Positions 831-18,120 of a stretch of 33,011 nt of DNA are shown here, piece after piece. The DNA is from a virus. The translations under genes were made by a program, and so were the position numbers. The stretch is from positions 1 through 33,011 of the IMG/VR virus record IMGVR_UViG_3300025736_000100; one strand, given 5' to 3'. The notes below the pieces were generated by a model. That model had not been told where the DNA came from. It was given only the letters and a program-made list of their open reading frames with translations, and made no database searches. How positions within the stretch are numbered: the first letter of the stretch is position 1; every line of letters begins with the position of its first letter.

Positions 831-851
831 TGTTTGACCTCCTGGTCACTA

Positions 852-1676: not shown

Positions 1677-1678
1677 TT

Positions 1679-2023
1679 TCAGGTTCCCTCTACAAAAATG
1701 ACTACTTGTGCTGACTTACTAGCTCCCATGTTTGCTCCGACAATGTTTACTTTGCCTACTACACAATATGGGCTATCTGTCTTTGTTCCTGTCGTGGTAA
1801 TCCAAGGGAAGAATACTGAGTTGCCAGTCGCTAAGACTGCTGTGTCAGTATAGATTGCTGTTCCGAATGCGTCAGTCACTGCTATATCATAGCTAGCACT
1901 TGGCGCAGCAGTTGATGATGGAACATTGACTAGCTGTATTACTCTACCACTAACACTAACGCTACCGGTTGCGTTGCCACTACTATCACTAGTAAGGCTT
2001 ACTACGTGTGATTGAATAGTCAT
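1679..2023 (-). CDS. Small beta-rich virion protein, function unknown
   Basis: 114 residues from ATG 2023 (MTIQSHVVSLTSDSSGNATG). This start lies one base after the stop of the EF-hand gene and has GAGGGAAG upstream; a longer reading from 2089 would only overlap that gene. The sequence is rich in Ser, Thr, Val and Gly with alternating hydrophobic residues, as in an Ig-like or jelly-roll structural protein. It sits in the head operon, so a decoration or minor head role is likely, but I do not recognise the family. Confidence 0.6.
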   Translation of the reverse strand: MTIQSHVVSLTSDSSGNATGSVSVSGRVIQLVNVPSSTAAPSASYDIAVTDAFGTAIYTDTAVLATGNSVFFPWITTTGTKTDSPYCVVGKVNIVGANMGASKSAQVVIFVEGT

Positions 2024-2024
2024 T

Positions 2025-2222
2025 TTATTTCTTCCCTCTTCGTAATGGTTTGAGAGCGACTTTGACATCTTCGATATCAACTTTGCCATCTTTGTTTAAG
2101 TCGAAACGACTTGTTTTCTTTTCTTCAACTTTCTTTGGTACAGTCTTCTCGACCATCTCAACATACAGTTGACCTTTCTCATTCTTCTTGATAACCCCTT
2201 CTGGGTCTTTGTGTCCTGGCAT
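2025..2222 (-). CDS. 65-residue EF-hand / dockerin-like calcium-binding protein
   Basis: The protein is short and highly charged. Residues 41-52 read DLNKDGKVDIED, a textbook 12-residue calcium loop with acidic or oxygen ligands at positions 1, 3, 5 and 12 and Gly at 6, followed by a hydrophobic helix (VKVALKPL), as in one half of a dockerin type I or a single EF-hand. The N-terminal 40 residues are Lys/Glu-rich and probably flexible. ATG 2222 has GGAGG upstream and follows a T-rich terminator-like tract. In the head operon it might bind calcium to stabilise the virion or recruit a partner; the role is inference. Confidence 0.7.
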   Translation of the reverse strand: MPGHKDPEGVIKKNEKGQLYVEMVEKTVPKKVEEKKTSRFDLNKDGKVDIEDVKVALKPLRRGKK

Positions 2223-2262
2223 GATTGTAACCTCCGTTGGTGTTGTGTTGTATTATGAAAGA

Positions 2263-2279
2263 TAAAAAAATAAAAAAAT
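2263..2279 (-). terminator. T-rich archaeal-type terminator after the decoration gene cluster
   Basis: On the - strand two runs of seven T, separated by one A, follow the stop of the third 105-residue paralogue. There is no GC hairpin, so it looks like an archaeal U-tract terminator rather than a bacterial one. The stop and following bases (GCATAAGCAAC) match those that precede the T-tract behind the major capsid gene. Confidence 0.5.
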
Positions 2280-2290
2280 AAGTTGGTTGC

Positions 2291-2608
2291 TTATGCGAAT
2301 GCTCCAGGTGTTGCTCGACCTTGAATCTCGATAACCCTACATTTGTTAGCGTTAGCACTCTGAACCGTCACGGTGACGGTTCCAGTCGTTACAGAACAAG
2401 TAGCAATATCCGTTACTATGATGCTACCACTCGTAGTGTGTACCCAGCTCTTAATCGTTAATAGACCAGTTGGCGACATGCCATAGTCTGCTAAGTCAAA
2501 AGTGAAGGTGTTGTTTTCGTCAGCGGTGTTAGGAGTCATAAAATAAACTCTCTTAATACCGGCGTTTGGCATTACTTCCCAATTTTCTAATACGCTAATT
2601 GCTGTCAT
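2291..2608 (-). CDS. Decoration-like paralogue 5 (105-residue type, copy 3)
   Basis: 105 residues. It shares the whole layout with the next two upstream genes: an N-terminal W.x.PNAG.K segment, P/ANT.D..N, DYG..PTGLL, SWVHTTSGS, a C.V..G.(L/T)TVTV strand, and RVI.I.GRA near the C-terminus. The fold is probably an all-beta sandwich. Start ATG 2608 overlaps the stop of the previous copy as TAATG. Small beta proteins encoded just after the major capsid gene are often head decoration or cement proteins; that role is inferred from position and tandem copies. Confidence 0.65.
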   Translation of the reverse strand: MTAISVLENWEVMPNAGIKRVYFMTPNTADENNTFTFDLADYGMSPTGLLTIKSWVHTTSGSIIVTDIATCSVTTGTVTVTVQSANANKCRVIEIQGRATPGAFA

Positions 2609-2925
2609 TATACAAACACCCCTAGGTCGGCTCGACCGGTTATTTGAATTACCCTAAAGTCGTTGTCTGTTCCTGCCGCTAATGTCACGGTTAGTACGCC
2701 TGCTGATACTGCGCAGGTGTTGAGCTCTGTCGTAACGACGCTTCCACTAGTCGTGTGTACCCAGCTTTCAACTGTTAGTAATCCTGTTGCTGAGATGCCA
2801 TAATCCGTAAGAGTGATTTCTAACGTGTTACCTGCATCTGATGTGTTCGCGGTGGTTAAAAGAACTGTCTTTAAACCATTGTTCGGGGATTGCTCCCATG
2901 CTTTCAATAGTGTAGTTGCTGCCAT
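2608..2925 (-). CDS. Decoration-like paralogue 4 (105-residue type, copy 2)
   Basis: 105 residues, about the same length and motif order as its two flanking copies: WEQSPNNGLK, TANTSDAGNT, DYGISATGLL, ESWVHTTSGS, LTVTLAAGT and RVIQITGRADLGVFV. It overlaps both neighbours by TAATG junctions, so the three copies are translated as a coupled set. The conserved SW(V)xT and GRA positions suggest a common structural core, with variable loops that could tune surface properties. No enzymatic motif is visible. Decoration or minor capsid role is inferred. Confidence 0.65.
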   Translation of the reverse strand: MAATTLLKAWEQSPNNGLKTVLLTTANTSDAGNTLEITLTDYGISATGLLTVESWVHTTSGSVVTTELNTCAVSAGVLTVTLAAGTDNDFRVIQITGRADLGVFV

Positions 2926-3242
2926 TATACAAACACCCCTGCGTCGGCTCGTCCAATTACTTGGATTACCCTTGCGTCGTCGTTTGTTCCTGCTGCTACT
3001 GTTACCGTCAAGACACCAGATGATACTGCTGTGGTGTTTGCTTCTGTGGTTATAATGCTACCGTCTGCGGTTTGAACCCAGCTATCTACAGCTAACAAGC
3101 CAGTTGGATGTATGCCATAAGTTGCTAGTGTTATCGCAATAGAATTGGTTGCGTCGGTAGTATTAGGTAACAAGAACAGCATGGTCTTCAACCCAGCGTT
3201 AGGAAGTCCTTCCCAACTCTTTAATATACTTGTTGCTGTCAT
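2925..3242 (-). CDS. Decoration-like paralogue 3 (105-residue type, copy 1)
   Basis: 105 residues: WEGLPNAGLK, LPNTTDATNS, ATYGIHPTGLL, DSWVQTADGS, LTVTVAAGT, RVIQVIGRADAGVFV. Its C-terminal half is closest to copy 2 (both end in GRAD.GVFV), suggesting a more recent duplication between these two. ATG 3242 has GAGGTAA upstream. See the family note under the tandem paralogue finding; function in virion decoration is an inference from location. Confidence 0.65.
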   Translation of the reverse strand: MTATSILKSWEGLPNAGLKTMLFLLPNTTDATNSIAITLATYGIHPTGLLAVDSWVQTADGSIITTEANTTAVSSGVLTVTVAAGTNDDARVIQVIGRADAGVFV

Positions 3243-3253
3243 CTTTTTTTACC

Positions 3254-3520
3254 TCATTCCTTGTACACGATAAGCCCTGAAGCAAGTAAGTATGCTGCTC
3301 CTGTCATCGTGATTACGTTCGTTGCGAGAGTGCAAGCATCGACTGTTCCTGCACTATCATCTATAATTACTGCGCTTACTACCGCCGAAGCGTTAGTCAC
3401 AGTAAAAGTGTCATTCTGAGCGGCCTTATTTGCTGAATCTATAAACCCAAGTTTATACCCAGCATTAGTCATTCCGCCTAGAGGTGCTAATTCAATAGCG
3501 ACTACATTTACATTTGTCAT
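3254..3520 (-). CDS. Decoration-like paralogue 2 (about 88 residues)
   Basis: The likely start is ATG 3520 (MTNVNVVAIELAP), which has GAGG eight bases upstream; ATG 3526 would leave almost no spacing. It aligns by eye along its whole length with the following-upstream gene at 3536-3805: N.NV.AIE..P.G, N.G.KLG..DS..K.A, DT.TV.NA, DACT..TNVI.MT.A, SG.LVY. The PN(A)G.K and G..(D)ACT/CSVT positions also echo the 105-residue copies. Probably an all-beta minor head protein. Confidence 0.6.
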   Translation of the reverse strand: MTNVNVVAIELAPLGGMTNAGYKLGFIDSANKAAQNDTFTVTNASAVVSAVIIDDSAGTVDACTLATNVITMTGAAYLLASGLIVYKE

Positions 3521-3535
3521 GTTCATTACCTCTGA

Positions 3536-3805
3536 TTATCTATATACTAGGAAGCCTGAGTGTGTTCCAGCATTTGCGTCTGTCATAACTATAACGTTAG
3601 TTGTGATAGTGCAAGCGTCTATTACTCCTGTTGCGTCGTCTGCTAAGACAGCCAGACCGACTTCTCTAGCGTTCATTACAGTCCATGTGTCGTCTGCTGC
3701 AACTTTCGCTTTCGAATCAACCCTTCCAAGTTTCCATCCCTCATTCGGGACACTCCCTGTTGGGCTTACTTCGATAGCAGTTACGTTTGTGTTTGCTAAT
3801 ACCAT
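3536..3805 (-). CDS. Decoration-like paralogue 1 (89 residues), first gene after the capsid
   Basis: 89 residues (MVLANTNVTAIEVSPTG ... THSGFLVYR). ATG 3805 has a strong AAGGAGGA site. It follows the major capsid gene across a T-rich terminator, so its expression probably depends on read-through or on a promoter within that 55-base gap. It is a divergent sister of the gene at 3254-3520. A head decoration role is inferred from this position; there is no recognisable enzymatic motif. Confidence 0.6.
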   Translation of the reverse strand: MVLANTNVTAIEVSPTGSVPNEGWKLGRVDSKAKVAADDTWTVMNAREVGLAVLADDATGVIDACTITTNVIVMTDANAGTHSGFLVYR

Positions 3806-3820
3806 GATTGTCCTCCTTGT

Positions 3821-3853
3821 ATAATCTTATAATAAAAAAGAAAAAAAGATTAT
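3821..3853 (-). terminator. T-rich terminator with inverted repeat behind the capsid gene
   Basis: On the - strand the capsid stop is followed by ATAATCTT, a T-rich loop (TTTTTTTCTTTTTT), then AAGATTAT. The two 8-base arms (3846-3853 and 3821-3828) are perfect inverted repeats. The long T-tract suggests partial termination of the capsid transcript, giving more capsid mRNA than downstream mRNA. Confidence 0.5.
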
Positions 3854-3860
3854 TCGTTGC

Positions 3861-4958
3861 TTATGCGCTGATACCGGTGATTGAAGAGCAGAACGCGGTG
3901 TTCTTGATGATGAGTGCTTCGTACACTTTAAGTGCGAATTTCTCACTATCGTTGGTTCTGGCAAGCTCAAAGTATGTTAAGTCTTGCAAGACTCTCATTT
4001 CCACGACGCTCATGTCTAGGAAGTAGATTGCCTTCTCAGCTGTGGTGTTGCTCAAGTACATGCTAGGTACGATAGGAATACTACCAACCATGCTGTGGAA
4101 TACGATTGTGGTGAATCCCCAGAATACTTGTGCTTCGGCTTTCATGTAACCGATTTTCTGCGTTAACAACTTGAGTATGTCGGTGTAGACACTTGAAGCG
4201 CAGATTCCTAAGTTAGGTCTTCCGCCATCATCGAATGCGTACTGGACTGCTGTGTGCATGTCGTCAAGTGAAAGAGCAGTGGTTCCTTTTGCTACAGCGT
4301 TCGTAGTACTCATTAACTTCACGATACCTGAGTATTGCGTTGCGTCAGTACTAGCGTCACCATTGACAATTAGGCTTTCTTGCTTCTCTCTGATTTCTCT
4401 AGTCTTAACTAAGACTTCTTGCTGCTTTGCGTTTGGTGCTCCTGCGTCCGCGAAAGGACCGGTTGCGCCTGCGCCAGGCTGCATTCCAGCTAATACGTAG
4501 CTAGGTTGTGCTGCGATTGATGGACCAGTTACTCGGCCGACAGCATAAATGTACTTAATTGCTGTGCTCTTTCTATCGTACGTAGTCACAGTCTCTGAGA
4601 GAGCCGCGTCTTCGTTTGCAGTGATTGCTCCACCTTTTGCGGTGATTTCGTTGTAGTCAGCGTAAGTTCCTTGGTTGGTAACCCTAGGGATTAACTCAAC
4701 AATAGGAGTGTACTTTCGTGTAGTATCAATGATACGTGGGTCAACATAAACTGGGACCATTGCGTATCCTGCTGTACCTGGGCCACCTGCGGTGACACCG
4801 TGTGCTTTGAGACCAACATCGAATGCTTTACCGACGTTCTCACGTAAATCAAGTGCTTTTACTCCAAAAACATTCTGATATACGGTTTTGTCTGGAAGGC
4901 TACCAAATGATTGCTGGTATGCGCTTGCAGGATTCATATTTACGGGTTGTGTGGACAT
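3861..4958 (-). CDS. Major capsid protein, HK97 fold
   Basis: 365 residues. It directly follows the prohead protease/scaffold gene, the usual place for the HK97-type capsid protein. The N-terminal 60 residues are helical and may act as a delta-like domain; then come PVYVDPRIIDTTRKYTPIVELIPRV (an N-arm/E-loop type region), ITANEDAALSETVTTYDRK, and KYIYAVGRVTGPS. The C-terminal half holds TREIREKQESLIVNGD, a spine-helix-like segment, and the P/A-domain strands SIPIVPSMYLS...KAIYFLDMSVVEMRVLQDLTYFELA. ATG 4958 has GAGGTAA upstream. Fold assignment is by pattern and context. Confidence 0.85.
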   Translation of the reverse strand: MSTQPVNMNPASAYQQSFGSLPDKTVYQNVFGVKALDLRENVGKAFDVGLKAHGVTAGGPGTAGYAMVPVYVDPRIIDTTRKYTPIVELIPRVTNQGTYADYNEITAKGGAITANEDAALSETVTTYDRKSTAIKYIYAVGRVTGPSIAAQPSYVLAGMQPGAGATGPFADAGAPNAKQQEVLVKTREIREKQESLIVNGDASTDATQYSGIVKLMSTTNAVAKGTTALSLDDMHTAVQYAFDDGGRPNLGICASSVYTDILKLLTQKIGYMKAEAQVFWGFTTIVFHSMVGSIPIVPSMYLSNTTAEKAIYFLDMSVVEMRVLQDLTYFELARTNDSEKFALKVYEALIIKNTAFCSSITGISA

Positions 4959-4986
4959 TTTCTTTTACCTCATGTCTGTCTTTTTT

Positions 4987-5334
4987 CTACACATAATCGA
5001 GAGGCGATTTTGCCTTCACTTTTACTGTAGTTACTTTGTCTAGGCCAGTGTTTACAATTCCTTTCATCATAGGCTTATTCATTTTTGCCTTTAGCTCAGC
5101 AACTACTTTCTTCTGCTCAGCTAATTCATCTTGTAAACTCTTAATCTGGTCAAGAGGGTTATTCTTTGGTGCTTCAGGTTCCGTTACAGGTTCTTCCTTT
5201 GGCTCCTCAGCTGGTTCTTCCTTTGGCTCTTCCTTAGGTTCTTCCTTTGGTTCTTCCTTCGGTTCCTCAACTACTACTACTTCTTCTTTGGGCTCATCAG
5301 CCACTTCTTCCTTTGGTTGTTCGTCTTCTGGCAT
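4987..5334 (-). CDS. Nested in-frame scaffold protein (internal start)
   Basis: ATG 5334 lies in frame within the protease gene at residue 184, exactly where the protease domain ends. It is preceded by AAGGAGGAT, with GGAGG eight bases from the ATG, as good a ribosome site as any in the window. The product would be 115 residues: MPEDEQPKEE, the PKEE repeat, a coiled coil and a basic C-terminus. Nested scaffolds made this way are known in other tailed phages (lambda C/Nu3). The internal site is seen in sequence; its use is inferred. Confidence 0.65.
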   Translation of the reverse strand: MPEDEQPKEEVADEPKEEVVVVEEPKEEPKEEPKEEPKEEPAEEPKEEPVTEPEAPKNNPLDQIKSLQDELAEQKKVVAELKAKMNKPMMKGIVNTGLDKVTTVKVKAKSPLDYV

Positions 5335-5883
5335 ATTACCATCCTCCTTGTCCTTCAACAGTATAGTGTTCATACTTTTGTAGAAACTCTCTGTCATCCT
5401 GGCACCCTTGTTAACTGGGTTGCCTGTGATTGCGACATTTAATAGTTCGAGATTCTTCAGTAATGTAACCTGGGCTCCATTTATGAATTCTTTAGCTGAG
5501 TCCTTAACTTTGTAAGCTATGCTAAATGCATCAAGAAACCCGTCTCGGATACTTTTCCAGATGGTCTCGAACTTATCGTGGGATTTGTTGATAACTGCCT
5601 CAACCCATAAGCCTTTCTTATCCATGCCAGCGCTAACTATCTTCCCTACTGGGATGTCGTTTTCGCCGACAAAGGTTCCGTGCTCGATATCTAATTTGAC
5701 GTTACCGGCTTTGATTTGACCAACCATGTCTGTCATGGCGTCTCTAGTGACTATTTCGTTGGCTCGGTCTAACTCGTCGGTAGATATGTATCCTTTGACG
5801 TGGTATTCTTTGCCTGCTTTTATGCCTAGTTCTGCGTATTCGAAACTGTTTGTTACGAATGAAAAGGAGCTTTTTGATTCCAT
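4987..5883 (-). CDS. Prohead serine protease fused to a scaffold domain
   Basis: 298 residues. Residues 1-165 are a prohead protease of the HK97 gp4 / S78 type: LDIEHG with likely catalytic His68, DAFSIAY with likely nucleophile Ser121, and LLNVAITGNPVN at 148-158, a signature of the family. Residues about 185-235 are a Pro/Lys/Glu repeat, and about 240-275 a coiled coil (DQIKSLQDELAEQKKVVAEL), as in scaffolds. The enzyme would cleave scaffold and capsid N-termini during head maturation. ATG 5883 has GAGG upstream and follows an AT-rich regulatory gap. An internal start can make the scaffold alone. Confidence 0.9.
   Translation of the reverse strand: MESKSSFSFVTNSFEYAELGIKAGKEYHVKGYISTDELDRANEIVTRDAMTDMVGQIKAGNVKLDIEHGTFVGENDIPVGKIVSAGMDKKGLWVEAVINKSHDKFETIWKSIRDGFLDAFSIAYKVKDSAKEFINGAQVTLLKNLELLNVAITGNPVNKGARMTESFYKSMNTILLKDKEDGNMPEDEQPKEEVADEPKEEVVVVEEPKEEPKEEPKEEPKEEPAEEPKEEPVTEPEAPKNNPLDQIKSLQDELAEQKKVVAELKAKMNKPMMKGIVNTGLDKVTTVKVKAKSPLDYV
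5189..5270 (-). repeat. 12-base tandem repeat coding for PKEE units
   Basis: A degenerate 12-base unit (GAAGAACCAAAG-like on the - strand) is repeated about six to seven times and encodes EEPKEEPKEEP. Such repeats change length easily and form an extended acidic linker between the protease and scaffold coiled coil. Confidence 0.75.
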
Positions 5884-5914
5884 TTTTGTCTTCCTCGTAT
5901 TGTTTTTTAATTTT

Positions 5915-5937
5915 AATCTTTTTAAAAATATTTATTT
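5915..5937 (-). promoter_or_regulatory. AT-rich element before the protease-capsid genes (copy A)
   Basis: On the - strand this 23-base element contains TTTTTAAAAAGATT and overlaps the stop of the preceding gene. It matches the element at 18121-18143 with a single mismatch. The core TTTAAAAAG resembles an archaeal TATA box about 35-40 bases before the protease ATG, which suits a promoter with a short leader. It could also serve as a terminator for the preceding gene. Confidence 0.45.
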
Positions 5938-6403
5938 ATATCGCTGTGTATAATATCCAAGCACACACAGTACATGGTGATGATGATGTTGTGACTGATG
6001 TGGTCCTGAATGTTAGTCTATCATTATTAGATAGCGCTACTGGTGTGAATGTGTCATTAGTTGCACTTCTTGCTCCTGCTAAAGTGACATTACAAAGTGC
6101 TCCTTGTAATGCTCCACTGATATTGGCTTCTATAACTGCAGCGCCAGCAGCATTGTTGATAGTAGCAGACATAGCTACTATTGCTGCAGTGTGTGTAGCT
6201 GGTATATACACAGCTATACCTGCGTTTGATGGTGTGTTAGCTCCATTACCAAAAGCCCATTCGTAAGTTGTATTTCCTAGTGTGCTGTTTTCTTCAGCCC
6301 ATATAGGCACCATGTAATTATTAGTTGCTGCTCCTGCTGCTCCAGTATCTCCTTTTGGTCCTTGGGTTCCACCCTGTCTTACACCGTCGATTATAATATC
6401 CAT
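5936..6403 (-). CDS. Small fibre-like protein with a short collagen segment
   Basis: 155 residues from ATG 6403 (MDIIIDGVRQGGTQ), which follows the previous stop after one base. Residues about 11-28 form a short Gly-X-Y stretch (GTQGPKGDTGAAGAA), followed by a beta-rich C-terminal domain of about 120 residues ending in SSPCTVCAWILYTAI. This is the shape of a small trimeric fibre or spike: collagen stalk plus globular tip. It sits between MuF-type and protease genes, so it may be attached to the head. No receptor-binding family recognised. Confidence 0.65.
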   Translation of the reverse strand: MDIIIDGVRQGGTQGPKGDTGAAGAATNNYMVPIWAEENSTLGNTTYEWAFGNGANTPSNAGIAVYIPATHTAAIVAMSATINNAAGAAVIEANISGALQGALCNVTLAGARSATNDTFTPVALSNNDRLTFRTTSVTTSSSPCTVCAWILYTAI

Positions 6404-6404
6404 T

Positions 6405-7445
6405 TTAGTTCTTGTCCGTATGCTCATACCAAGTGACTTCTATCGATGCTGGTCCATTTGATGTAGCCGTGTCGGCTCCGACATATCTGAAGCAATATCT
6501 AGTGCCTGCTAGTAAGATGTACTCATCGGTTCCTCTTGAGCCACCAGCTGTTCCTCCTTTTCCAGCACCAACTGCTTCTATATGTAGTTGAGTTGTTGAG
6601 CTGGTATAAGTTGCGTTAACCACTGGAGTGGTTGCTGTTGAGACTTTTACTGAGTTCCTATTTCTATTGTGTGGGACATAAGCTGTTCCTCCACTTGTAA
6701 CTGCTACTTCTTCAATACTGAAGAGCCCAGCGTTTGTTGCTCCAACCATGGCTTCACAATGAAACCATTTATCTCCTGCAGGTGTAGTGAACGCAATATT
6801 GATTTCTCCATCTTTCGCAAGATTAGCATCTGCTACGTGTATAGCAAAAGAACTTCCAGAGTGGACTTCGTGATGTGAATAATCAATATTCATTAAAACA
6901 TTAGTGCTTGCATCAACGCCAACATCTAAATCATTAGCTACCAAACCAACATTACCAATAGTGTTGGTTCCTGATGCAATAACAGGGTCAGCAGTAAGAG
7001 CAACAGGACTGTTCTTGATATTAGCAGAAACATCAACTGTGCAAGCACCACTTGTCTGAGTGATAATTATAGTGAAAGACTGACCGTTAGTCTGTCCAAA
7101 ATTAATAGAAGAAACAGCTACTGAAAGACTGGTGTTACCTACGCTCTCGTAAATCTTAGTACCATTGTCAGAAGATATAGTTATAGTTCGAGACTCAGCA
7201 CTTGAGAACTCAAGACCAACGTTATCTAATATGTAATCATAAGAAGGAGTTACTACCTCTGAATAAGGTGCTGCGTTTATGTCGTAAGCCGTGTCGTTAA
7301 TAACATTCTCAATCTTTAATTGTGATGTTGTAGGAAGGGGATTATCACTGTCCACTGGTAGCCCTGTGTCATAGTCCATTATTTTTATAGGTACTGGGTT
7401 GTCTTCCTTGACCATAGCGTTGTTGTTGAATTCGGTTAGTGTCAT
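6405..7445 (-). CDS. Beta-rich virion surface protein
   Basis: 346 residues with Ser/Thr/Asn-rich, alternating hydrophobic sequence typical of virion surface proteins. The N-terminus (MTLTEFNNNAMVKEDNPVPIKIMDYDTGLPVD) looks like an attachment segment. The C-terminal 150 residues, with GDKWFHCEAMVGATNAGLFSIEEVAV and LLAGTRYCFRYVGADTATSN, resemble a jelly-roll tip often seen in baseplate or head-fibre proteins. It is coupled by ATGA to a 36-residue acidic gene and followed by the small collagen protein, so the two may form one spike. I do not recognise a named family. Confidence 0.6.
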   Translation of the reverse strand: MTLTEFNNNAMVKEDNPVPIKIMDYDTGLPVDSDNPLPTTSQLKIENVINDTAYDINAAPYSEVVTPSYDYILDNVGLEFSSAESRTITISSDNGTKIYESVGNTSLSVAVSSINFGQTNGQSFTIIITQTSGACTVDVSANIKNSPVALTADPVIASGTNTIGNVGLVANDLDVGVDASTNVLMNIDYSHHEVHSGSSFAIHVADANLAKDGEINIAFTTPAGDKWFHCEAMVGATNAGLFSIEEVAVTSGGTAYVPHNRNRNSVKVSTATTPVVNATYTSSTTQLHIEAVGAGKGGTAGGSRGTDEYILLAGTRYCFRYVGADTATSNGPASIEVTWYEHTDKN

Positions 7446-7552
7446 TCTTCATCCTCGAACAAGTGGTCCATACCAATAACCTTACCTTCAACGCCTGCTA
7501 ATACTGCGTCATCCTCTTCATCATCCATCCTTTTGAATTCTTCTTCTAACAT
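7442..7552 (-). CDS. 36-residue acidic protein
   Basis: MLEEEFKRMDDEEDDAVLAG... : 36 residues, about a third Asp or Glu. The start overlaps the MuF-zeta stop as TAATG and the stop overlaps the next gene as ATGA, so it is tightly coupled on both sides, the main support for its being real. Acidic mini-proteins next to toxin domains can be antitoxins or DNA mimics; with no family match here, that is only a possibility. Confidence 0.6.
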   Translation of the reverse strand: MLEEEFKRMDDEEDDAVLAGVEGKVIGMDHLFEDEE

Positions 7553-9072
7553 TATAGGTACCCCCGCTTGGCTATGTCTTTATTTTCAGCTAACATCTTA
7601 GCTGGCATAGTGTTGTCTTTCCTTGTGAATGAGCCGAAATGTTGGCTCAGTTTATCAACTGTAGATTTAATCATGTGTTCGTAATCAACTATCATCTCGT
7701 AGGGTGTGTATCGTCCTTCTTCGACGTATCTTTTAGCCGCCATTGTCATTGCTTGGTCTACTGGAACATCAACGAATATGAGTGTGGACTTGTAACCTTT
7801 AGCGTGTAGTTTATCAACAACCTTCGCTGACTTGTCGTGGTTCTTCATCGTCCCATCAATTATGAAGTTTGCTCCTTGTTTTGATGCTTCTGCTATGAAT
7901 GTCTGATTAAGTGTAGTGCTCTCTTTGTGTACTATCTGTGAGCCTTTACCACCGTTGTACTCTGGTAGTCGCTCTTTAATCTGGTCTGCGGCTAACATTA
8001 CATATCGTTCTCCAGCGTTGTCTTCTAATAATAACTTGTTGTCTCCTACTTGTTTGAAGTCGTTTTGTGTTGCGAATGTTTTACCAGCTCCTGGTAGTCC
8101 TGCCATGAATACAACTTTTGATTGACCGTCGTTAGGTGCGGCTTGTTTGATTGCATTCGCGTAATCTCCTGCTATCTCTTTGTGTACTTTTACACGTGCC
8201 GGATTCCATGTCATAGTCGCATGATTGTAGTTATTACCTAATGTATCTTTACCTGCTTGTACAAGCCTTGTTTGCTCCTTCATACTCTTGATGTCAGCGG
8301 GTTTAATGTATGAGTCCAACTCTTTAGCCAACTCGTGTTTATTCTGCTGTCTGGTGGGTGATTGAGGGCTGCTTGCTAACCTGCCGGTTTTTGGGTCTTT
8401 GTACCAATAACGGTAGTGTCCTGGGCCACCTGTTCGTTTAACATACTTTGCTTTCATCCCAACAGATAATTCTGTGATGGACTTCTCTTGAATGTAAACA
8501 CACCTACTCCTACAATTAGGGTGAGCTGGTGGCATATCAAACTCTTGACCTTCATATTTGAATCGTTGGTCGATGCCGATTGTTTTACCATCAAGTGCTC
8601 TACATACAGGGCTTGTTCTATTGTCAAGGTGTGCGTCCCATCGTTTCCTTAACTTCAACCCGCTTTCACGAGCCGCATCTAAGTGTCCCATGTTTTCGGC
8701 TCTGTTCATTTCAGTTCTTGCTATCATCCTAGCTCTGTCTACTGATACGTCGAGGACTTTCTTTACACGGTCCTTCATAGCCTCAACTGACTCGAGGTTC
8801 AGTAGGCTTTGTGATAACTCCTTACGTAACTTGTTAGAAGCTTCATCCTTCAAATCTTTAATGTTCTCAAAGGTGAATCGTTCAAGCATGTCGTATCTCG
8901 CAGGGTTACCGGTAAAGTTCATATTAAATTGTATGCCTAAAGCATCTAATCCTTCCTCATAGCTTTCTCTAAGGTATTTGCTTATCAGTGGGCTAAGTAC
9001 ACCCACGTCTAAGATGCTGACGAACTTAATCGTCAAGTCTTCAATTATCCCTTTGAGTTCAGCGTCAATCAT
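7552..9072 (-). CDS. MuF/SPP1 gp7-type minor head protein fused to a zeta-toxin-like kinase
   Basis: 506 residues in two parts. Residues about 60-195 are a MuF/gp7 head morphogenesis domain: ARTEMNRAENMGHLDAARE (118-136), HLDNRTSPVCRALDGK (148-163) and PPAHPNCRSRCVY (181-193). Residues about 318-480 are a P-loop kinase of zeta toxin type: Walker A GLPGAGKT (325-332), MLAADQIKERLPEY with likely base Asp363, HKESTTL, IIDGT, and RYVEEGRYTP near 448-457. The MuF part is found with portal proteins at the vertex; the toxin part in known zeta enzymes phosphorylates UDP-sugars. A linker at 205-240 joins them. ATG 9072 overlaps the portal stop. Confidence 0.85.
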   Translation of the reverse strand: MIDAELKGIIEDLTIKFVSILDVGVLSPLISKYLRESYEEGLDALGIQFNMNFTGNPARYDMLERFTFENIKDLKDEASNKLRKELSQSLLNLESVEAMKDRVKKVLDVSVDRARMIARTEMNRAENMGHLDAARESGLKLRKRWDAHLDNRTSPVCRALDGKTIGIDQRFKYEGQEFDMPPAHPNCRSRCVYIQEKSITELSVGMKAKYVKRTGGPGHYRYWYKDPKTGRLASSPQSPTRQQNKHELAKELDSYIKPADIKSMKEQTRLVQAGKDTLGNNYNHATMTWNPARVKVHKEIAGDYANAIKQAAPNDGQSKVVFMAGLPGAGKTFATQNDFKQVGDNKLLLEDNAGERYVMLAADQIKERLPEYNGGKGSQIVHKESTTLNQTFIAEASKQGANFIIDGTMKNHDKSAKVVDKLHAKGYKSTLIFVDVPVDQAMTMAAKRYVEEGRYTPYEMIVDYEHMIKSTVDKLSQHFGSFTRKDNTMPAKMLAENKDIAKRGYL

Positions 9073-10877
9073 TGTATCTTGTCTAACTCACTACTCTTCA
9101 ATTGGTCAATGCGTGATAGTATTTCTTTGCCACGAGTCTTCATAGCAGCAACTAAATCTTTTTCTAAGTCGTTCCAAGGCTTGTCTGCCTTCATACTCTT
9201 CTCTTCAACGTAAGCATCTTCGAATTCGGGTTCTTCTAATTGAACTCCTCCATCTATGACTTTAAGCTCCTCGTAGAAGAACACATCCATACCGTCTTGG
9301 AATCGCACCATGTAAACCTTTTCTTCGCCGTTGGTCTTAATGTATTCGACAATACCTGTCTTGCCAGCATGTGCTTTATGGTTACCGGTTACTTTGACAC
9401 GTGTACCTTTCATGATACCTAAAGCCTTCATCGACTTATTACCAGGTCCTTCGTCTCCGTTGAAACCAGCATTCTGTGTCTTAATCTCTCGGTCTAACTC
9501 TTTCTCAGCATTCTCATCCTTCTGCTTAGTAAGTTCGACAACATCAATGTTCTCTTCCTCAGCCACCATTTCCGGAGTCTTAATACCCATACGAATCTGA
9601 GCTTCATATAATGTGTGTCGCTGGATGTCTTCTGTGAGGTCGTAATCATCCCACTTGAACTCTAATAGTTCGAATGCTTCTTCTCCCCACTCAGGAATAA
9701 TCTCCTTATCGATATGGTACTTGATATTAAGAAGCATTGGCTTAACTGCTTTACGCTTGTTGACTTTGCTCTGGTTCTCAGCGACTGCTTTATTGCTGTC
9801 TTGTGTGAAGCCCATTTCTTCAGCTGTCACACCGAATGCGCCCCATACTAGCTTGGTGAACCATTCTTGTTGTTCGATTATCTGCATTACCTTAGGGTCT
9901 AATTGGAAAGGCGTGAATTTCACTTCTTGATTGACGATTGGGAACTTGAACCCAACCTTTCGCATGAAACCGGTTATTGTGTCTTTAACACGGAATTGTT
10001 TATCAAACCGGTTACGGAACGCTGTGATGCTATCTTGGTCGCCGTTTAATAAACTAATCACTCCTTCTGGCATGTTGTTATTCATATAGAAGTCTAGGTT
10101 GTAATTAGCACCGTATACTAATGTCGTGATTGTGTCAGCAAGTATTTGTATTGGGCTAAGGCCGTATACGTTATTGCTCTGAGGATTGGCTTTAACATAG
10201 ACAATCTCTCTCCTTCCGAAAGGCACTGGTAAAGCCATCGCTGTAGTTCCATATTGGAAGTAAGCAGCAACTTCTTTGTATGCTAATCCGTATTGGTGAA
10301 TGGTTGATTGCCAGTCAGGGCTTTCAGGTGTCATGGCATAGTTAATATTAACCGGCATTACGTAGTCAGTCCTGTTACCGATGTATCCGTATATGTCAGG
10401 GTTCAGTAAGAATGAACCACCGTCTCTTGCGAACATCTCAACGAATTGTCCGCCTTTGTTGAATATCTTAACTATGACTCCTGCGTCTACTTCACAAACA
10501 TCTTTAACTACTGCTCGTAGTATGTATTGGAAGCTTTCCTTGTTGTTGTTAGGATTGTCTAAGAACTTCAGTATGTCGAGCCTTATCTTATCAGCTGCTG
10601 GTGTTGGCTCTGCTTCTTCCTTATACACAATATCATAGTGTGTACTAGCTGCTTCGTCAGCAATAGACTTGATGACGCTGTAGATGTAAGGGTTCTTCGC
10701 CAATTGTCTTAATAGTGGTATGTTCTCTTTCCTTGGGTATCCGAACGGAGGCTTGTAGAGGAAATCAGGGATATAGGCTTTCATGATACCGCTGGTATCA
10801 TTTATCGCCACATCACCTGCACCTCTGTCGCTAAGTGGTTCGGCTTTCCTTCCTATGTCGTATCCAAAAAATTTCAT
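9069..10877 (-). CDS. Portal protein with a C-terminal KOW-like domain
   Basis: 602 residues. The body (about 40-450) is a portal: NPYIYSVIKSIADEAA near 62-77, QSNNVYGLSPIQILADTI, FYMNNNMPEGVISLLNGD, and a C-terminal VWGAFGVTAEEMGFTQDSNKAVAENQ, all typical of the dodecameric DNA-entry channel. Residues about 485-544 are an SH3/KOW-like beta barrel (KGTRVKVTGNHKAHAGKTGI ... VRFQDGMDVFFYEELKVID), unusual for a portal. ATG 10877 with GAGGTAA upstream. It precedes MuF, as in SPP1-like modules. Confidence 0.9.
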   Translation of the reverse strand: MKFFGYDIGRKAEPLSDRGAGDVAINDTSGIMKAYIPDFLYKPPFGYPRKENIPLLRQLAKNPYIYSVIKSIADEAASTHYDIVYKEEAEPTPAADKIRLDILKFLDNPNNNKESFQYILRAVVKDVCEVDAGVIVKIFNKGGQFVEMFARDGGSFLLNPDIYGYIGNRTDYVMPVNINYAMTPESPDWQSTIHQYGLAYKEVAAYFQYGTTAMALPVPFGRREIVYVKANPQSNNVYGLSPIQILADTITTLVYGANYNLDFYMNNNMPEGVISLLNGDQDSITAFRNRFDKQFRVKDTITGFMRKVGFKFPIVNQEVKFTPFQLDPKVMQIIEQQEWFTKLVWGAFGVTAEEMGFTQDSNKAVAENQSKVNKRKAVKPMLLNIKYHIDKEIIPEWGEEAFELLEFKWDDYDLTEDIQRHTLYEAQIRMGIKTPEMVAEEENIDVVELTKQKDENAEKELDREIKTQNAGFNGDEGPGNKSMKALGIMKGTRVKVTGNHKAHAGKTGIVEYIKTNGEEKVYMVRFQDGMDVFFYEELKVIDGGVQLEEPEFEDAYVEEKSMKADKPWNDLEKDLVAAMKTRGKEILSRIDQLKSSELDKIQ

Positions 10878-10886
10878 TTGTTTACC

Positions 10887-11216
10887 TCAGTTACTTTGGT
10901 CTTTAATGTCTTGCTTTATCTCTAATAGTAATGCTTCGATGTTTGCTAGTTTTGCGTTGATTAATGCTATGTCAACGTCCCTGTCGCTATCGATTGCTTG
11001 TAGTGCTAGGATTGATTCTTGGTTTGAATAAAACCCGTTTGATACGTGGTTGATTCGGTCGTCGAATTCTTTGTGGTCTGCGTTCATGTCTGCTTTCCAT
11101 GTTGCAAAATTGAAAGACATTACCAATAGGAAGATAATAACTGTGATTGCTACACCAACGCTGATTTTGAAGCTATGCTTCTCTATACTTGTTTGTTTCT
11201 TTGTGACCATAATCAT
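10887..11216 (-). CDS. Single-pass membrane protein with coiled coil
   Basis: 109 residues from ATG 11216 (MIMVTKKQTSIEK), which overlaps the glycosyltransferase stop as ATGA and has AAGGTGA upstream. Residues about 17-38 (FKISVGVAITVIIFLLVMSF) form one transmembrane helix, preceded by basic residues, so the N-terminus is probably cytoplasmic. The rest is charged and coiled-coil-like (ALINAKLANIEALLLEIKQDI). Candidates are a holin-like or spanin-like lysis factor or a virion membrane-contact protein; nothing in the sequence decides. Confidence 0.7.
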   Translation of the reverse strand: MIMVTKKQTSIEKHSFKISVGVAITVIIFLLVMSFNFATWKADMNADHKEFDDRINHVSNGFYSNQESILALQAIDSDRDVDIALINAKLANIEALLLEIKQDIKDQSN

Positions 11217-12961
11217 TTCACCTTCTCTGCAGCTAATTTTTGAATTAGTAGCTCTTTGTCTTCTGCTTGATTTTTCCACCCTTTATCTATAATTGCATCC
11301 CTTAGAGCTTCTTGACCTTCTCTTGAAAAATGATGATGTAATACTTTCCCTTTTGATATCATAGATTGATTTAACTTTGTGCATCTGGCCCATAGTAAAT
11401 CGTCTACACCTACATGATGGAAATCAGTATCAAATATTTCGCCACCTATCTGGTCTATCAAATCCCTTTTGATTAGGAAATGTTCGCAGATATAACCTTC
11501 AGCATTACGAACACCAGTATCAAAAGCAACGAGACCTTTTACCTTTGAATCATCGACTGCAATTTTTAAGCTATCAGGTAGGAACTCCATATCATTAGCA
11601 GCATACACTATAAGATTCGAAGTTGCTTGTCTTAAGCCTTTTGCGACTTTAACAGGCACTGTCTCATCACCTTCAATGATAATTCGTTGTATTTTGTATT
11701 GTGGGTAGTCTAATTTCTCAATTGAGTCAAGTAATCTTTTTAATCCTTCAGGTCTTCCTAATTGAGGAATAATTATTGATACAATCGGTAAATCAACTGT
11801 TTCTTTATCAACATAATAATGAATGTCACGTAGATAAGTTTTATTTCTTGGTTGATATCTTAGCGCTTCTAGTATGTGTTTTTTAGCACCTTCAATATCT
11901 CCTAGCCAACCTCTTGCCCAGTAAAGTAGTTCATGAGGTTGATAAGTATAATGTGCCATATTATTAGCATAAAAAGGGAACCAAGGTAATTCCATAGCAG
12001 CTACCGTATATGCAGCTACCATTTTAGGATTATTCATGTATTTGTAATATTCAGCAATCTTTATAAATGGTTCACGTCTTGAGTCTTCAATAAATAACGA
12101 TTTGTTATAGCACTCGATTTGTTCTTTATGCATTCCCAACATCTTATAGCAATCACCCATAAATATCATACTTTGTGCTTTTTCTGTTGGCCATTTATTC
12201 ATAGCGATATGTCTTTCAAATTCTTTGATTGCACTTTTAGGTCGATTGCACCACATCAATTCTCTAGCAAAATAATGGCTGTTTCTATCTTCGCCTTGAT
12301 TTTGAAAACAATCAAGAGCTAAGCCAGCAAGATAATTACCTCTGTGTTCTGATGGAATTTGGAAGTGTTCTAGTTTAAATATTTCTTCACCAAAAAAGAA
12401 TCTTTTGCCTGGGCCACTTAATACTTCATGCACCATATTTACCCATTTAATATTAGTTTGATTATACATCTTACTTTGAACGAATTTGATAGCCTCATTA
12501 CCATATTCATCGTGAGCATAAACAAAGTTGTATTCGAATTGGTCCCAACCATCAGCAATGTGTTTGTTAATAGTATCGATGTCTAACATTGTAAATATTT
12601 CATCTGCATCAGCATAACTTACGATATCATTTGAAGCTAGACTTGTACAATAGTTTCTTGCTTCACTAAAGTCGAAGAATTTATTACCATCAACGACAAC
12701 CGGTTCTTCACCTTCAACAATGAATAGATTATTTATTTCATCTGCTTTTTTAGCGTCAATAGTCTTGATAAATTTTGTGCCTACTTCTTCAGTCTTGCAA
12801 CCAAAAGCTTTTGCAATTTCTACAGTTTTATCGTTACTACCAGTATCTACAACGACCGTTTCTCCTCCTCTCGCTTTAAAATCTTCTAAAGACTTTAATA
12901 GTTTAGGAAGAGTTTTCTCTTCGTTCTTGGTTATTACGCAAACTGTAAATTTCGGTTTCAT
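11213..12961 (-). CDS. Two-domain family 2 glycosyltransferase with TPR linker
   Basis: 582 residues. Residues 1-~200 are a GT-A family 2 domain: VCVITKNEEKTLPKLLKSL, nucleotide-binding VVDTGSNDKT (37-46) and the metal-binding DAD at 118-120. Residues about 210-385 form TPR-like helices (LALDCFQNQGEDRNSHYFAR). From about 393 a second GT-A-like domain starts (LPIVSIIIPQLGRPEGLKRL), with ND at VYAANDMEFLPDS. The substrate is unknown; in virus genomes such enzymes decorate virion proteins, DNA or host surface. Hand-counted lines are about one third GC against about 42 % around it, hinting at transfer. ATGA overlaps on both sides. Confidence 0.85.
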   Translation of the reverse strand: MKPKFTVCVITKNEEKTLPKLLKSLEDFKARGGETVVVDTGSNDKTVEIAKAFGCKTEEVGTKFIKTIDAKKADEINNLFIVEGEEPVVVDGNKFFDFSEARNYCTSLASNDIVSYADADEIFTMLDIDTINKHIADGWDQFEYNFVYAHDEYGNEAIKFVQSKMYNQTNIKWVNMVHEVLSGPGKRFFFGEEIFKLEHFQIPSEHRGNYLAGLALDCFQNQGEDRNSHYFARELMWCNRPKSAIKEFERHIAMNKWPTEKAQSMIFMGDCYKMLGMHKEQIECYNKSLFIEDSRREPFIKIAEYYKYMNNPKMVAAYTVAAMELPWFPFYANNMAHYTYQPHELLYWARGWLGDIEGAKKHILEALRYQPRNKTYLRDIHYYVDKETVDLPIVSIIIPQLGRPEGLKRLLDSIEKLDYPQYKIQRIIIEGDETVPVKVAKGLRQATSNLIVYAANDMEFLPDSLKIAVDDSKVKGLVAFDTGVRNAEGYICEHFLIKRDLIDQIGGEIFDTDFHHVGVDDLLWARCTKLNQSMISKGKVLHHHFSREGQEALRDAIIDKGWKNQAEDKELLIQKLAAEKVK

Positions 12962-13851
12962 GTACCGTTCACCTTTGAAATGCTTGCTATTGCGATGCCG
13001 TTGATTTTTGCGATGCTAGCGTTTGCTACGCCTAAGAAGTTGTTAGCCCAGCCAGCAGCTGGTAGGAAAGGATACTGTATTCCTGTTCCACCATTGTATA
13101 GTTCATCTATGTCGGCTTGTTCTAAAGCTCTGTTCCAAATGCCTATTTCATCGATACCACCATCCCACCAACGAGTTGCGTTACCATCGGCACCACCTAT
13201 TGTTAAGTCTTTGGTGCTTCCAAAGGTTCCTGGAGAAGGTTCAGGCGAAGCACATCTGACTCCATCAAGATATAAGTAAGCGTTAGTGTTACTCTGGTCT
13301 ATAACAAGAACTACATGATGCCAATTAGTATCAACGATTGGTGATTCATCCATACCGAAACTCATGTTTGCATTATCACCGTAAGCTTGAACTACGCCTG
13401 TAGATTTAGGTACACGAACCATCCACTCACCCGCGCCTGTGTCGCCTTTACCAAAGATAGAACACCAGTCAGGAGTAATAGTAGCGTCTAACTTAACCCA
13501 AGCACTGATTGTGAAGTCGTGGCTATCAGGTCGTAAATCAGCGTGGTCGGGGACAGTGATAACATCGCCATTACCGTCATAATCAAAAGCGCCATTTATC
13601 TTACCACTACCATTATATACAGCATTAGCAACCGTTCCGTCATGTGAATTTACTGAGTCAATTTGTGTAGCACTATCAACATCGAACTTCCAATAAGCGA
13701 CACAACCTATTGATAAAGCTATACGATTAGCTGACATCATAGACAATAGTTTACCATCAGCCATATACTCTAATTCTCTGTTCCAAATATCAGTAACAGG
13801 AAGTAGCTTACCATCAGCCATATAGTTTAATGCTTCGTTGAGGTCTGCCAT
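12958..13851 (-). CDS. LamG / concanavalin A-like fibre or adhesin protein
   Basis: 297 residues. Residues about 48-255 are a LamG-type jelly roll of the laminin G 3 kind: VAYWKFDVDSATQIDSVNSH, FDYDGNGDVITVPDHADLRP, FTISAWVKLD, WHHVVLVIDQSNTNAYLYLD and GGIDEIGIWNRALEQADIDEL, the last being a family hallmark. The N-terminus has two copies of (Y)MADGKLLP/S spaced by about 20 residues. The domain usually binds sugars, so this is a probable receptor-binding or fibre-tip protein. It overlaps both neighbours in the fibre operon. Confidence 0.85.
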   Translation of the reverse strand: MADLNEALNYMADGKLLPVTDIWNRELEYMADGKLLSMMSANRIALSIGCVAYWKFDVDSATQIDSVNSHDGTVANAVYNGSGKINGAFDYDGNGDVITVPDHADLRPDSHDFTISAWVKLDATITPDWCSIFGKGDTGAGEWMVRVPKSTGVVQAYGDNANMSFGMDESPIVDTNWHHVVLVIDQSNTNAYLYLDGVRCASPEPSPGTFGSTKDLTIGGADGNATRWWDGGIDEIGIWNRALEQADIDELYNGGTGIQYPFLPAAGWANNFLGVANASIAKINGIAIASISKVNGT

Positions 13852-15590
13852 TAGGTTACCTCTATTGAGTCAACTGTGAAGTCTGAACTAGCATTTTGAC
13901 AAACAATCCTTACGAGATACAACCCATCTCTCGTTGGAGTGATTGTCGCTGATTGTTGGTGTCTTGAAGTGTCGTTATCATCGAATAGAACGCTGTCTTC
14001 TAACAACCCATTAGAACCATAAACATCCATTCTTGGCTCACGAGTCCAACCAGTCGTTGAAGCCTTCGTACCATATAATGTTATTGCTGTATCAGTTGAT
14101 TTCACATACACAGGTATAGTCATTTTGAACCATGTGCTACTATTCGTTGAATTAATAATCCAAGCCTTTGGAGAAGCAGCATTCTGAAATTGTGCGTCAC
14201 CATAACCACTATAAAATCTATGGTCATTTATTGTCTGGTTATAGTGTTCAAAACCCACTGGATAATCACCAGTAGCTACACGTTGGTTAAAAGTTACATC
14301 AGCTACGACTAACTTACAATATGAGAAGAGCGCCTGTCCTCCTCTACCTATTTCAACAGAGTTTGCGTTGTTAGCTTGTGACCCACCAGGCCCTATGCTG
14401 AACTCGCAACTACGAAATATTACATTAGCTACGCCAGCTGATATAAACACTCCTGATGCAGTCGTTGTAGCGTATACCTCACAACTATTAAACGCTAGTC
14501 CACCACCGTCACCGCTATTAAGGTATATAGGTCTGACACAGTTGCTAAACACACAATTATTAAATGATGTAGCGTAACCACTGACTCCATCTGATTGATA
14601 CACTGAACCGTTGGACTTTGTATAATTCATCCAGACACAATCCTTAAACGTTACTCCACCACAACCATTAAAAGAACGATATATAAAATATGAGCCGTAA
14701 CCAACGCATTCAGTAGCTGTTATTCCTACATCGCTAGCCGTACCAGGTCTTATTAACATACCACTTGCTTGTTCGTTCTGGCTTACCCCTTCGACGACAA
14801 TATTTTGTGAACTTGAACCATCAACCGCCATAAAAGCTGTGTAGTCGCTAGTTTTGACACAATCGCCTCTTATCTCGACATTCTTGACAATCGCAGGAAC
14901 GTTATCGCTGAATTTTGTTACACATTGACTTCCACCCCATCGGTGAGTTGCGTCAACTGATGAGAAGACAACGTTACGTGTTAGGTTTACTACACGAGCA
15001 CCGTCTGCGTGGGCGTTAGCAAAACCTGTTGAATAGCTAATTGTTAAACCTGCAACACCAGTTACTGTCACCTTCTCTGTATTTGCAGCATCAGTATAAG
15101 TGTCAGTATTCTCAACTGCTATCTCATCACCTACTAGCCAACCAGTAGCAGCTGCAACAGTGATGTCTGTATCGGTAGCTGTTATTGCAGCTGTTAGCGT
15201 TGTATGATTAGTCTTAGCTGCACCAACAATCTCTATGTCAGCACTACCCCAGCCTTGAAAGTAAGGCCCACCATCTGTTCCATCAGCAATTATTTCTGCA
15301 GTGAAAGCAGCTCCAATAGGTGTTGCTTCAGTCCCTATTTCTAGCTTACCAGCTACTCCTGGTATTCTCCAATAACTTGATATACGAAGCGAAGTATCCT
15401 TAGTGGTATCCCAAGTTAGTGTACCACCTGCTCTTATATCAATAATAGCGTAAGTCTTTAAGGCATCATCCTCATCGAATGTTACGGTATCATCTATCCA
15501 TACGGTGTCACCATCTGCAGGTACTGAACCTCCTACCCATGTTGCTCCTGCTGTCCAATTACCATCTGTGGTTGATGCGACTGTTGCCAT
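13851..15590 (-). CDS. G8 domain / right-handed beta-helix spike protein
   Basis: 579 residues. Residues about 8-75 match a G8-like module (GNWTAGATWVGGSVPADGDT, then IDDTVTFDEDDALKTYAIID). A short Ig-like insertion follows (TALTAAITATDTDIT-type motif near 130-200). Residues about 210-440 show repeated short strands of parallel beta-helix type (GGVTFKDCVWMNYT, TSFNNCVFSNCVRPIYL, VIFRSCEFSIG). The C-terminus is a jelly-roll-like tip (DGLYLVRIVCQNASSDFTVD). Such proteins act as host-binding or polysaccharide-degrading spikes. No catalytic residues could be assigned. Confidence 0.75.
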   Translation of the reverse strand: MATVASTTDGNWTAGATWVGGSVPADGDTVWIDDTVTFDEDDALKTYAIIDIRAGGTLTWDTTKDTSLRISSYWRIPGVAGKLEIGTEATPIGAAFTAEIIADGTDGGPYFQGWGSADIEIVGAAKTNHTTLTAAITATDTDITVAAATGWLVGDEIAVENTDTYTDAANTEKVTVTGVAGLTISYSTGFANAHADGARVVNLTRNVVFSSVDATHRWGGSQCVTKFSDNVPAIVKNVEIRGDCVKTSDYTAFMAVDGSSSQNIVVEGVSQNEQASGMLIRPGTASDVGITATECVGYGSYFIYRSFNGCGGVTFKDCVWMNYTKSNGSVYQSDGVSGYATSFNNCVFSNCVRPIYLNSGDGGGLAFNSCEVYATTTASGVFISAGVANVIFRSCEFSIGPGGSQANNANSVEIGRGGQALFSYCKLVVADVTFNQRVATGDYPVGFEHYNQTINDHRFYSGYGDAQFQNAASPKAWIINSTNSSTWFKMTIPVYVKSTDTAITLYGTKASTTGWTREPRMDVYGSNGLLEDSVLFDDNDTSRHQQSATITPTRDGLYLVRIVCQNASSDFTVDSIEVT

Positions 15591-15853: not shown

Positions 15854-15854
15854 C

Positions 15855-18064: not shown

Positions 18065-18120
18065 GATTATAACCTCTTGGTGCGTTGTTTTAATAAGTAG
18101 CTATGTTTCTTGTTATTTAC

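What the first reader, a model, noticed from the sequence alone, without database searches (positions are those of the whole stretch)
7552..9072. Minor head protein carrying a zeta-toxin-like kinase
A MuF/gp7 domain (HPNC, ARTE motifs) is joined in one frame to a P-loop kinase with GLPGAGKT, IIDGT and R...GRYTP. MuF fusions to toxin domains are known in temperate bacterial phages as polymorphic toxins. Finding a full zeta-type kinase in a probable archaeal virus head suggests a protein delivered with DNA, or one that acts on nucleotide sugars in the producing cell. The next gene is a 36-residue acidic protein that could be its antidote.
Basis: partly seen in the sequence, partly recalled or inferred. 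Interest (0 to 1): 0.75.

Follow-up and report, generated by a model that had tools for sequence, protein, structure and literature searches.

The report
Capsid protein fused to zeta-like kinase
A tailed virus, probably of tiny uncultured archaea, has a toxin-like kinase fused to a minor head protein; relatives attach the same kinase, or other enzymes, to neighbouring head proteins through one recurring 16-residue tag, so the head may carry enzymes into the host cell.

Summary
Observation confirmed. ORF 7552-9072(-), 506 aa, joins a MuF/SPP1-gp7 domain (res 80-190) to a zeta-type P-loop kinase (res 309-479) in one frame. A second IMG/VR contig has the same DNA. The kinase models well and resembles zeta/PezT and AvrRxo1; Walker A K331, D363, T408, R448 and R454 are kept. 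Two UDP-GlcNAc contacts of zeta are lost, so UDP-GlcNAc is an unlikely substrate; NAD, as for AvrRxo1, fits at least as well.
MuF-zeta fusions are already reported for phages (Iyer 2017), so the kind is known. New here:
(1) In close relatives the kinase is absent, fused to the portal, or a separate gene beside MuF; all five kinases of this clade group together.
(2) It is joined by a recurrent unnamed peptide, KYxKRxGxPGxYxYWY, which in relatives also joins other enzyme-like modules to portal or MuF. Free-standing proteins with it sit just downstream of portal/MuF far more often than other genes (24/47 vs 17/213).
(3) Major capsid relatives lie in Woesearchaeota/Nanoarchaeota MAGs, suggesting a DPANN host, where a peptidoglycan target is implausible.
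The 36-aa acidic gene recurs in one relative only; its antidote role is unproven. Packaging, toxicity and substrate are untested.

The parts
7552..9072 (-). MuF-linker-zeta fusion protein, 506 aa
   Evidence: open frame; Pfam PF04233 and PF06414; identical in L002
8473..9072 (-). MuF/gp7 minor head domain, residues 1-200
   Evidence: PF04233 res 80-190; 55-59% identical to short MuF proteins of L003 and L004, which stop just after this domain
8401..8448 (-). linker tag KYVKRTGGPGHYRYWY, residues 209-224
   Evidence: same motif in at least 119 IMG/VR stretches; modelled as three short beta strands
7636..8148 (-). zeta-type P-loop kinase domain, residues 309-479
   Evidence: PF06414 4e-30; model pLDDT 88.6; PezT/zeta and AvrRxo1 top structural matches
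7442..7552 (-). 36-aa acidic ORF, possible antidote or cofactor (role unproven)
   Evidence: overlaps the stop of the fusion and the start of the next gene; similar 34-aa acidic ORF after the kinase in L013, shuffle p 0.0045
9069..10877 (-). portal protein, directly upstream (context)
   Evidence: PF04860 6e-28
4987..5883 (-). prohead protease (context); in L003 and L004 it follows MuF directly
   Evidence: PF04586 1e-9
3861..4958 (-). major capsid protein (context; marker used for host)
   Evidence: position after the protease; relatives in DPANN MAGs

Best explanation
The protein is a virion head component whose MuF part docks at the portal vertex inside the capsid. Through a small beta-strand tag it carries a zeta/AvrRxo1-type small-molecule kinase. 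The kinase is probably packaged with the genome, enters the new host with it, and phosphorylates an abundant host metabolite there (NAD or another nucleotide rather than UDP-GlcNAc), slowing host metabolism or a defence response at the start of infection. It is one of a set of exchangeable effectors (kinase, metallopeptidase-like, ADP-ribosyltransferase-like) that these viruses attach to portal, MuF or protease. Shown here: the fusion, the fold match and catalytic residues, the exchange of modules, and the link to head genes. Inferred: packaging, delivery, the substrate and the effect.
For: Domains. Fold: (pLDDT 88.6), Foldseek PezT 1e-8 and zeta 2e-8, VIA Z 18.2 AvrRxo1, 17.0 zeta and 16.5 PezT against 13.4 for polynucleotide kinase. 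Among 12 viral homologues G325, G330, K331, D363, K366, E384, D406, R448 and R454 are invariant. D363 is the equivalent of catalytic Asp67 and T408 of Thr118 of zeta. Module exchange: short MuF without kinase in L003 and L004; kinase on the portal in L087 and L111, and separate but tag-bearing in L013 right after MuF; these plus L133 and the window form one clade, support 95/98. Other cargo behind the same tag: a shared HExxH-type module on MuF (L010, L152) and on the portal (L016), with Peptidase_Mx1 2e-6 in L152; ART-PolyVal 1e-22 in L154. Head link: tag ORFs not fused to portal/MuF lie directly downstream of them in 24 of 47 cases against 17 of 213 other ORFs, p 9e-11; 34 of 120 carry a head-protein domain themselves. 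Precedent: MuF-fused enzymes proposed as injected effectors, and zeta-MuF fusions named (PMC5512222); MuF-toxins Bxa and Apk2 are toxic in bacteria (PMC11699363). Host: MCP relatives at 56-64% identity in two Woesearchaeota, one Nanoarchaeota and one unplaced archaeon MAG.
Against: No virion proteomics, expression or enzyme data. Most MuF relatives lack any tail, so the kinase is dispensable. The tag also occurs in proteins with no head gene found on the fragment held (34 of 120). One of five MAGs with a capsid relative is a WOR-3 bacterium, and none of the MAG hits is shown to be integrated. The substrate cannot be read from sequence.
Confidence: 0.55

Rival explanations
1. It is a MuF polymorphic toxin in the strict sense: made in the producing cell, held in check by the small acidic gene, released at lysis and used against competing cells or viruses.
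For: MuF plus a swappable toxin-type C-terminus matches the definition. A small acidic ORF is overlapped with the kinase gene in the window, and a similar one follows the kinase in L013 (shuffle p 0.0045). No such ORF (up to 50 aa, pI under 4.5, starting at the MuF stop) was seen between MuF and protease in the relatives listed, where the kinase does not follow MuF. Experimentally tested MuF toxins have small immunity genes next to them.
Against: No acidic ORF follows the portal-zeta fusions L087 and L111. Similarity of the two peptides rests on one pair of acidic sequences. 36 aa is much shorter than the known antitoxins of this kinase fold (own knowledge). No integrase was recognised in the ORFs scanned, while MuF toxins are tied to temperate phages.
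Confidence: 0.2
2. The kinase serves the virus itself in the infected cell or in assembly, for example as a nucleotide or DNA/RNA 5'-end kinase near the packaging machine, and is not a toxin.
For: Polynucleotide kinases are the next structural neighbours (Z 11-13) and phrog_505 polynucleotide kinase matches at 4e-6. Position at the portal would suit DNA end work.
Against: Zeta/PezT/AvrRxo1 are clearly closer in sequence and fold. The same tag carries unrelated enzymes, which suits effectors better than a packaging function. Close relatives do without it.
Confidence: 0.15
3. A neutral or decaying passenger: a recently acquired moron that happens to be in frame with the minor head protein.
For: The kinase and the following genes up to 5884 are absent between MuF and protease in L003 and L004.
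Against: Catalytic residues are intact and invariant across 12 homologues; the kinase is kept in three different attachments in one clade.
Confidence: 0.07

Closest known systems
MuF-zeta-type fusions and polyvalent proteins of phages (Iyer et al. 2017, PMC5512222)
   Same: MuF domain fused to a zeta-toxin-like kinase; proposed to be packaged and injected with DNA
   Different: That paper ties the kinase to peptidoglycan precursors in bacteria and reports a paucity of polyvalent proteins in archaea. Here the virus group is DPANN-associated, two UDP-GlcNAc contacts are lost, and a defined tag links the parts and recurs on portal and protease.
MuF polymorphic toxins (Jamet et al. 2017, PMC5576092; Bxa and Apk2, PMC11699363)
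   Same: N-terminal MuF, variable C-terminal enzyme, short MuF forms without tail, small ORF behind
   Different: The main text of the 2017 survey contains neither 'archaea' nor 'zeta' nor 'kinase'; immunity gene and temperate lifestyle are not established here
Zeta/PezT toxins of the epsilon/zeta system (PMC3062530)
   Same: Fold, Walker A, catalytic Asp, Thr118 equivalent, two lid arginines
   Different: No epsilon/PezA-like antitoxin recognised next to it; E100 and T128 equivalents lost; part of a virion protein
AvrRxo1/XopAJ NAD kinase effectors (PMC5491322)
   Same: Best structural Z (18.2); NCBIfam NF041405 is the best kinase-family match of the relatives L013 and L087; AvrRxo1 does not use UDP-GlcNAc
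   Different: Scores far below the curated cut-off (36-37 vs 300 bits); a secreted bacterial effector, not a virion protein
Zeta-toxin proteins of haloarchaeal tailed viruses HVTV-1 and HCTV-5
   Same: Archaeal virus zeta homologues (tblastn 1e-15 and 5e-14); role unknown (PMC4284463)
   Different: Separate proteins, not MuF fusions; in HCTV-5 the MuF-like gpF gene is a different gene a few kb upstream

Membership tests
MuF/SPP1 gp7 minor head proteins | MuF domain, encoded right after the portal | tested here: met
   PF04233 9e-19 and TIGR01641 1e-16; portal ends where it begins
Zeta toxin family (PF06414) | profile match above cut-off over the kinase core | tested here: met
   105 bits vs cut-off 22.3, profile 8-177 of 199; note that this profile also rings in all 14 control genomes in a genome search, so weak matches mean little
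Zeta toxin family (PF06414) | Walker A Lys, catalytic Asp, phosphate-binding Thr, lid arginines | tested here: met
   K331, D363, T408, R448, R454; roles of the two arginines from own knowledge
Epsilon/zeta toxin-antitoxin (UDP-GlcNAc kinase) | UDP-GlcNAc contacts Glu100, Arg120, Thr128 | tested here: not met
   Q390, K410 and V418 at these places by the pairwise alignment; contacts from PMC3062530
Epsilon/zeta toxin-antitoxin (UDP-GlcNAc kinase) | adjacent epsilon/PezA-type antitoxin gene | tested here: inconclusive
   36-aa acidic ORF with no family match; a similar ORF in one relative only
AvrRxo1/XopAJ NAD kinases | family profile above curated cut-off; NAD 3'-kinase activity | tested here: inconclusive
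   relatives L013 and L087 match at 2e-9 and 4e-9 but 36-37 bits vs cut-off 300; the window protein itself is not listed; activity not testable here
MuF polymorphic toxins | C-terminal module swapped among relatives with a conserved N-terminus | tested here: met
   no tail (L003, most relatives), HExxH-type module (L010, L152), other module (L016), kinase (window)
MuF polymorphic toxins | cognate immunity gene | tested here: inconclusive
MuF polymorphic toxins | temperate phage | tested here: inconclusive
   no integrase family among the window ORFs scanned, but not every ORF was scanned and the record may be a fragment
MuF polymorphic toxins | toxicity of the C-terminal domain | not testable with these tools
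   needs expression experiments
Polyvalent/injected virion effectors | presence in the virion and transfer to the host cell | not testable with these tools
   only genomic association with head genes

The most novel reading that the evidence does not exclude
The peptide KYxKRxGxPGxYxYWY is a general head-packaging or anchoring tag of uncultured tailed viruses: it marks proteins destined for the capsid interior and lets these viruses, including viruses of DPANN archaea, load exchangeable enzymes (here an NAD-type kinase) onto portal, MuF or protease for injection.
Probability: 0.3. Interest if true: 0.8.

Novelty: new variant of a known kind. Interest (0 to 1): 0.55.

Why it matters
Very little is known about how viruses of DPANN archaea take over cells. 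If true, this shows that they carry ready-made enzymes in their heads, as T4 does with Alt, and it extends MuF-borne effectors to archaeal viruses, where a 2017 survey saw a paucity of such proteins. The recurrent tag gives a simple handle: search for it, and one finds candidate virion cargo next to head genes in uncultured viruses. It also gives a testable alternative to the cell-wall model of zeta kinases in hosts where a peptidoglycan target is implausible.

Tried and rejected
A zeta Pfam search across 371 genomes of the presumed host phylum was useless: it matched 320 of them and all 14 control genomes, because the profile picks up many P-loop kinases. A search for spacer-like DNA matches of the window (1-20000) in the same phylum gave mainly homology in the capsid and portal/MuF region, repetitive Glu/Pro-rich sequence (5157-5329) and short matches of chance type, so no CRISPR evidence for the host. 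The MuF query in genome contigs found no relative. A joint alignment of MuF and zeta rows misaligned and was discarded. The tag alone has no clear PDB fold match (best Foldseek E 2.0; core pLDDT 84-86) and no match in PHROGs or NCBIfam, nor a Pfam match over it in the window protein. The tag query found no convincing match in 50,697 isolate phage records (only E 4 hits), though 34 residues is a weak query. The tag pattern occurs in only one of 343 genomes of the host phylum, a Woesearchaeota MAG, and in none of 147 of the WOR-3 phylum. A UDP-GlcNAc/peptidoglycan mechanism was considered and put second for lack of the contact residues and because of the likely archaeal host. ParB-like and ADP-ribosyltransferase readings of the tails of L016 (MuF), L192 and L231 by eye are not supported by Pfam above cut-off.

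Full report
OBSERVATION. The 506-aa frame at 7552-9072(-) is real and uninterrupted. It holds a MuF/gp7 domain (PF04233 9e-19, res 80-190) and a zeta-type kinase (PF06414 4e-30, res 309-479). An IMG/VR contig identical over 11.5 kb carries the same junction. The gene sits between portal and prohead protease with the order portal, MuF-kinase, 36-aa ORF, 346-aa ORF, 163-aa ORF, protease, major capsid.

THE KINASE. An AlphaFold2 model of res 205-506 has mean pLDDT 88.6. Foldseek ranks PezT and zeta first (1e-8). VIA-align gives AvrRxo1 Z 18.2, zeta 17.0, PezT 16.5, with polynucleotide kinases next at 13. In 12 viral homologues K331, D363, E384, D406, R448 and R454 are invariant. By the pairwise alignment, with the Walker A and Asp motifs matched by eye, D363 corresponds to catalytic Asp67 and T408 to Thr118 of zeta, while Glu100, Arg120 and Thr128, which contact UDP-GlcNAc (PMC3062530), are Q390, K410 and V418. 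AvrRxo1 also lacks predicted substrate residues, does not use UDP-GlcNAc, and makes 3'-NADP (PMC5491322). The closest relatives L013 and L087 match the AvrRxo1 family model at 2e-9 and 4e-9, well below its curated cut-off. NAD is therefore a reasonable first guess for the substrate, not a finding.

THE LINKER TAG. Between the domains lies KYVKRTGGPGHYRYWY (res 209-224). Positions that the pattern did not force are also conserved: His before it (71 of 128), Thr/Glu at +5, Pro at +8 (93 of 128), Asn/His at +10 and Trp at +14. It is modelled as three short beta strands, without a PDB match and without a family match in PHROGs or NCBIfam. Tag ORFs carry a head-protein domain themselves in 34 of 120 cases. 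On loci with a portal or MuF gene on the same strand, tag ORFs not fused to these lie immediately downstream of one in 24 of 47 cases, against 17 of 213 other ORFs (Fisher p 9e-11). A 34-residue tag query found nothing convincing among 50,697 isolate phage records.

EXCHANGE OF MODULES. 70 MuF relatives were fetched. Most end right after the MuF domain, including the close relative L003; L004 has only a 41-aa tail; in both the protease follows directly. The same kinase type is fused behind the tag to the portal in L087 and L111, and is a separate tag-bearing gene right after MuF in L013. A tree puts these, L133 and the window in one clade (support 95/98). A different, HExxH-type module follows the tag on MuF in L010 and L152 and on the portal in L016 (Peptidase_Mx1 2e-6 in L152). 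An ART-PolyVal domain follows the tag in L154 (1e-22). Within one virus group the enzyme parts thus move between head proteins while tag and head parts stay.

THE ACIDIC ORF. The 36-aa ORF overlaps both neighbours by start/stop codons. L013 has a 34-aa acidic ORF in the same place after its kinase; the two are more alike than composition predicts (p 0.0045). In the MuF-protease intervals of the relatives listed I saw no such ORF starting at the MuF stop. The portal-zeta fusions L087 and L111 have none behind them. An antidote role is possible but rests on two loci.

HOST. Capsid protein relatives (56-64% identity) were found in five MAGs: two Woesearchaeota, one Nanoarchaeota, one archaeon without finer name, one WOR-3 bacterium. 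One Woesearchaeota MAG also holds the tag twice, once in a protease and once behind a portal-MuF fusion with a further C-terminal domain. The window also carries a B-family polymerase, a weak match to the small primase subunit and an ERCC4 nuclease. A DPANN archaeal host is likely, not shown; the MAG contigs could be misbinned virus contigs.

KNOWN AND NEW. Iyer et al. 2017 already state that the zeta-toxin-like kinase is fused to MuF domains in phages and propose injection; they note few such proteins in archaea. MuF toxins with small immunity genes have been tested in bacteria. Zeta proteins are annotated in haloviruses with unknown role. What is new is the variant: a DPANN-associated virus group, a recurrent unnamed tag, one kinase clade seen on MuF, on the portal and free, and the loss of UDP-GlcNAc contacts.

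MECHANISM. Most likely the MuF part places the kinase in the head near the portal and the kinase acts in the newly infected cell on NAD or another nucleotide. The anatomy and the link to head genes are shown; packaging, delivery, substrate and effect are inferred.

Noticed in passing
L013 3226-4762: MuF is interrupted at HPN|C by an intein-like Hint domain; its N part ends one ORF and the C part, with an HNH endonuclease and the end ...VHN|CRSVLQYIQVD, lies in an overlapping second ORF. It may be a split intein or a frameshift. L027 has a similar Hint-like tail at the same place.
   Followed up: partly
window 25522-27542: A weak TGT match (E 0.005, below cut-off) next to a Vut_1-type transporter (3e-49): possibly preQ0 import plus 7-deazaguanine modification of viral DNA.
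   Followed up: no
L231 1-2007 (Woesearchaeota MAG): Portal-MuF-tag protein with a C-terminal part containing YHGTS, which by eye looks like an ADP-ribosyltransferase; Pfam does not confirm it.
   Followed up: partly
window 15855-17714: Collagen-like protein with long GPTG/GYTG repeats, probably a fibre.
   Followed up: no
window 11213-12961: Glycosyltransferase-type protein with TPR-like repeats upstream of the portal (Glycos_transf_2 6e-16).
   Followed up: no
L044, L106, L115, L161, L169, L171 and others: Portal and MuF are fused into one protein with the tag and a 150-330 aa segment between them; the four such segments scanned (L044, L115, L169, L171) have no Pfam match above cut-off.
   Followed up: partly
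L007, L006, L005: Zeta homologues in Bacteroides phage DAC16 (annotated as hypothetical), halovirus HCTV-5 and the 1499-aa 'minor head protein' of cyanophage PSS2.
   Followed up: partly
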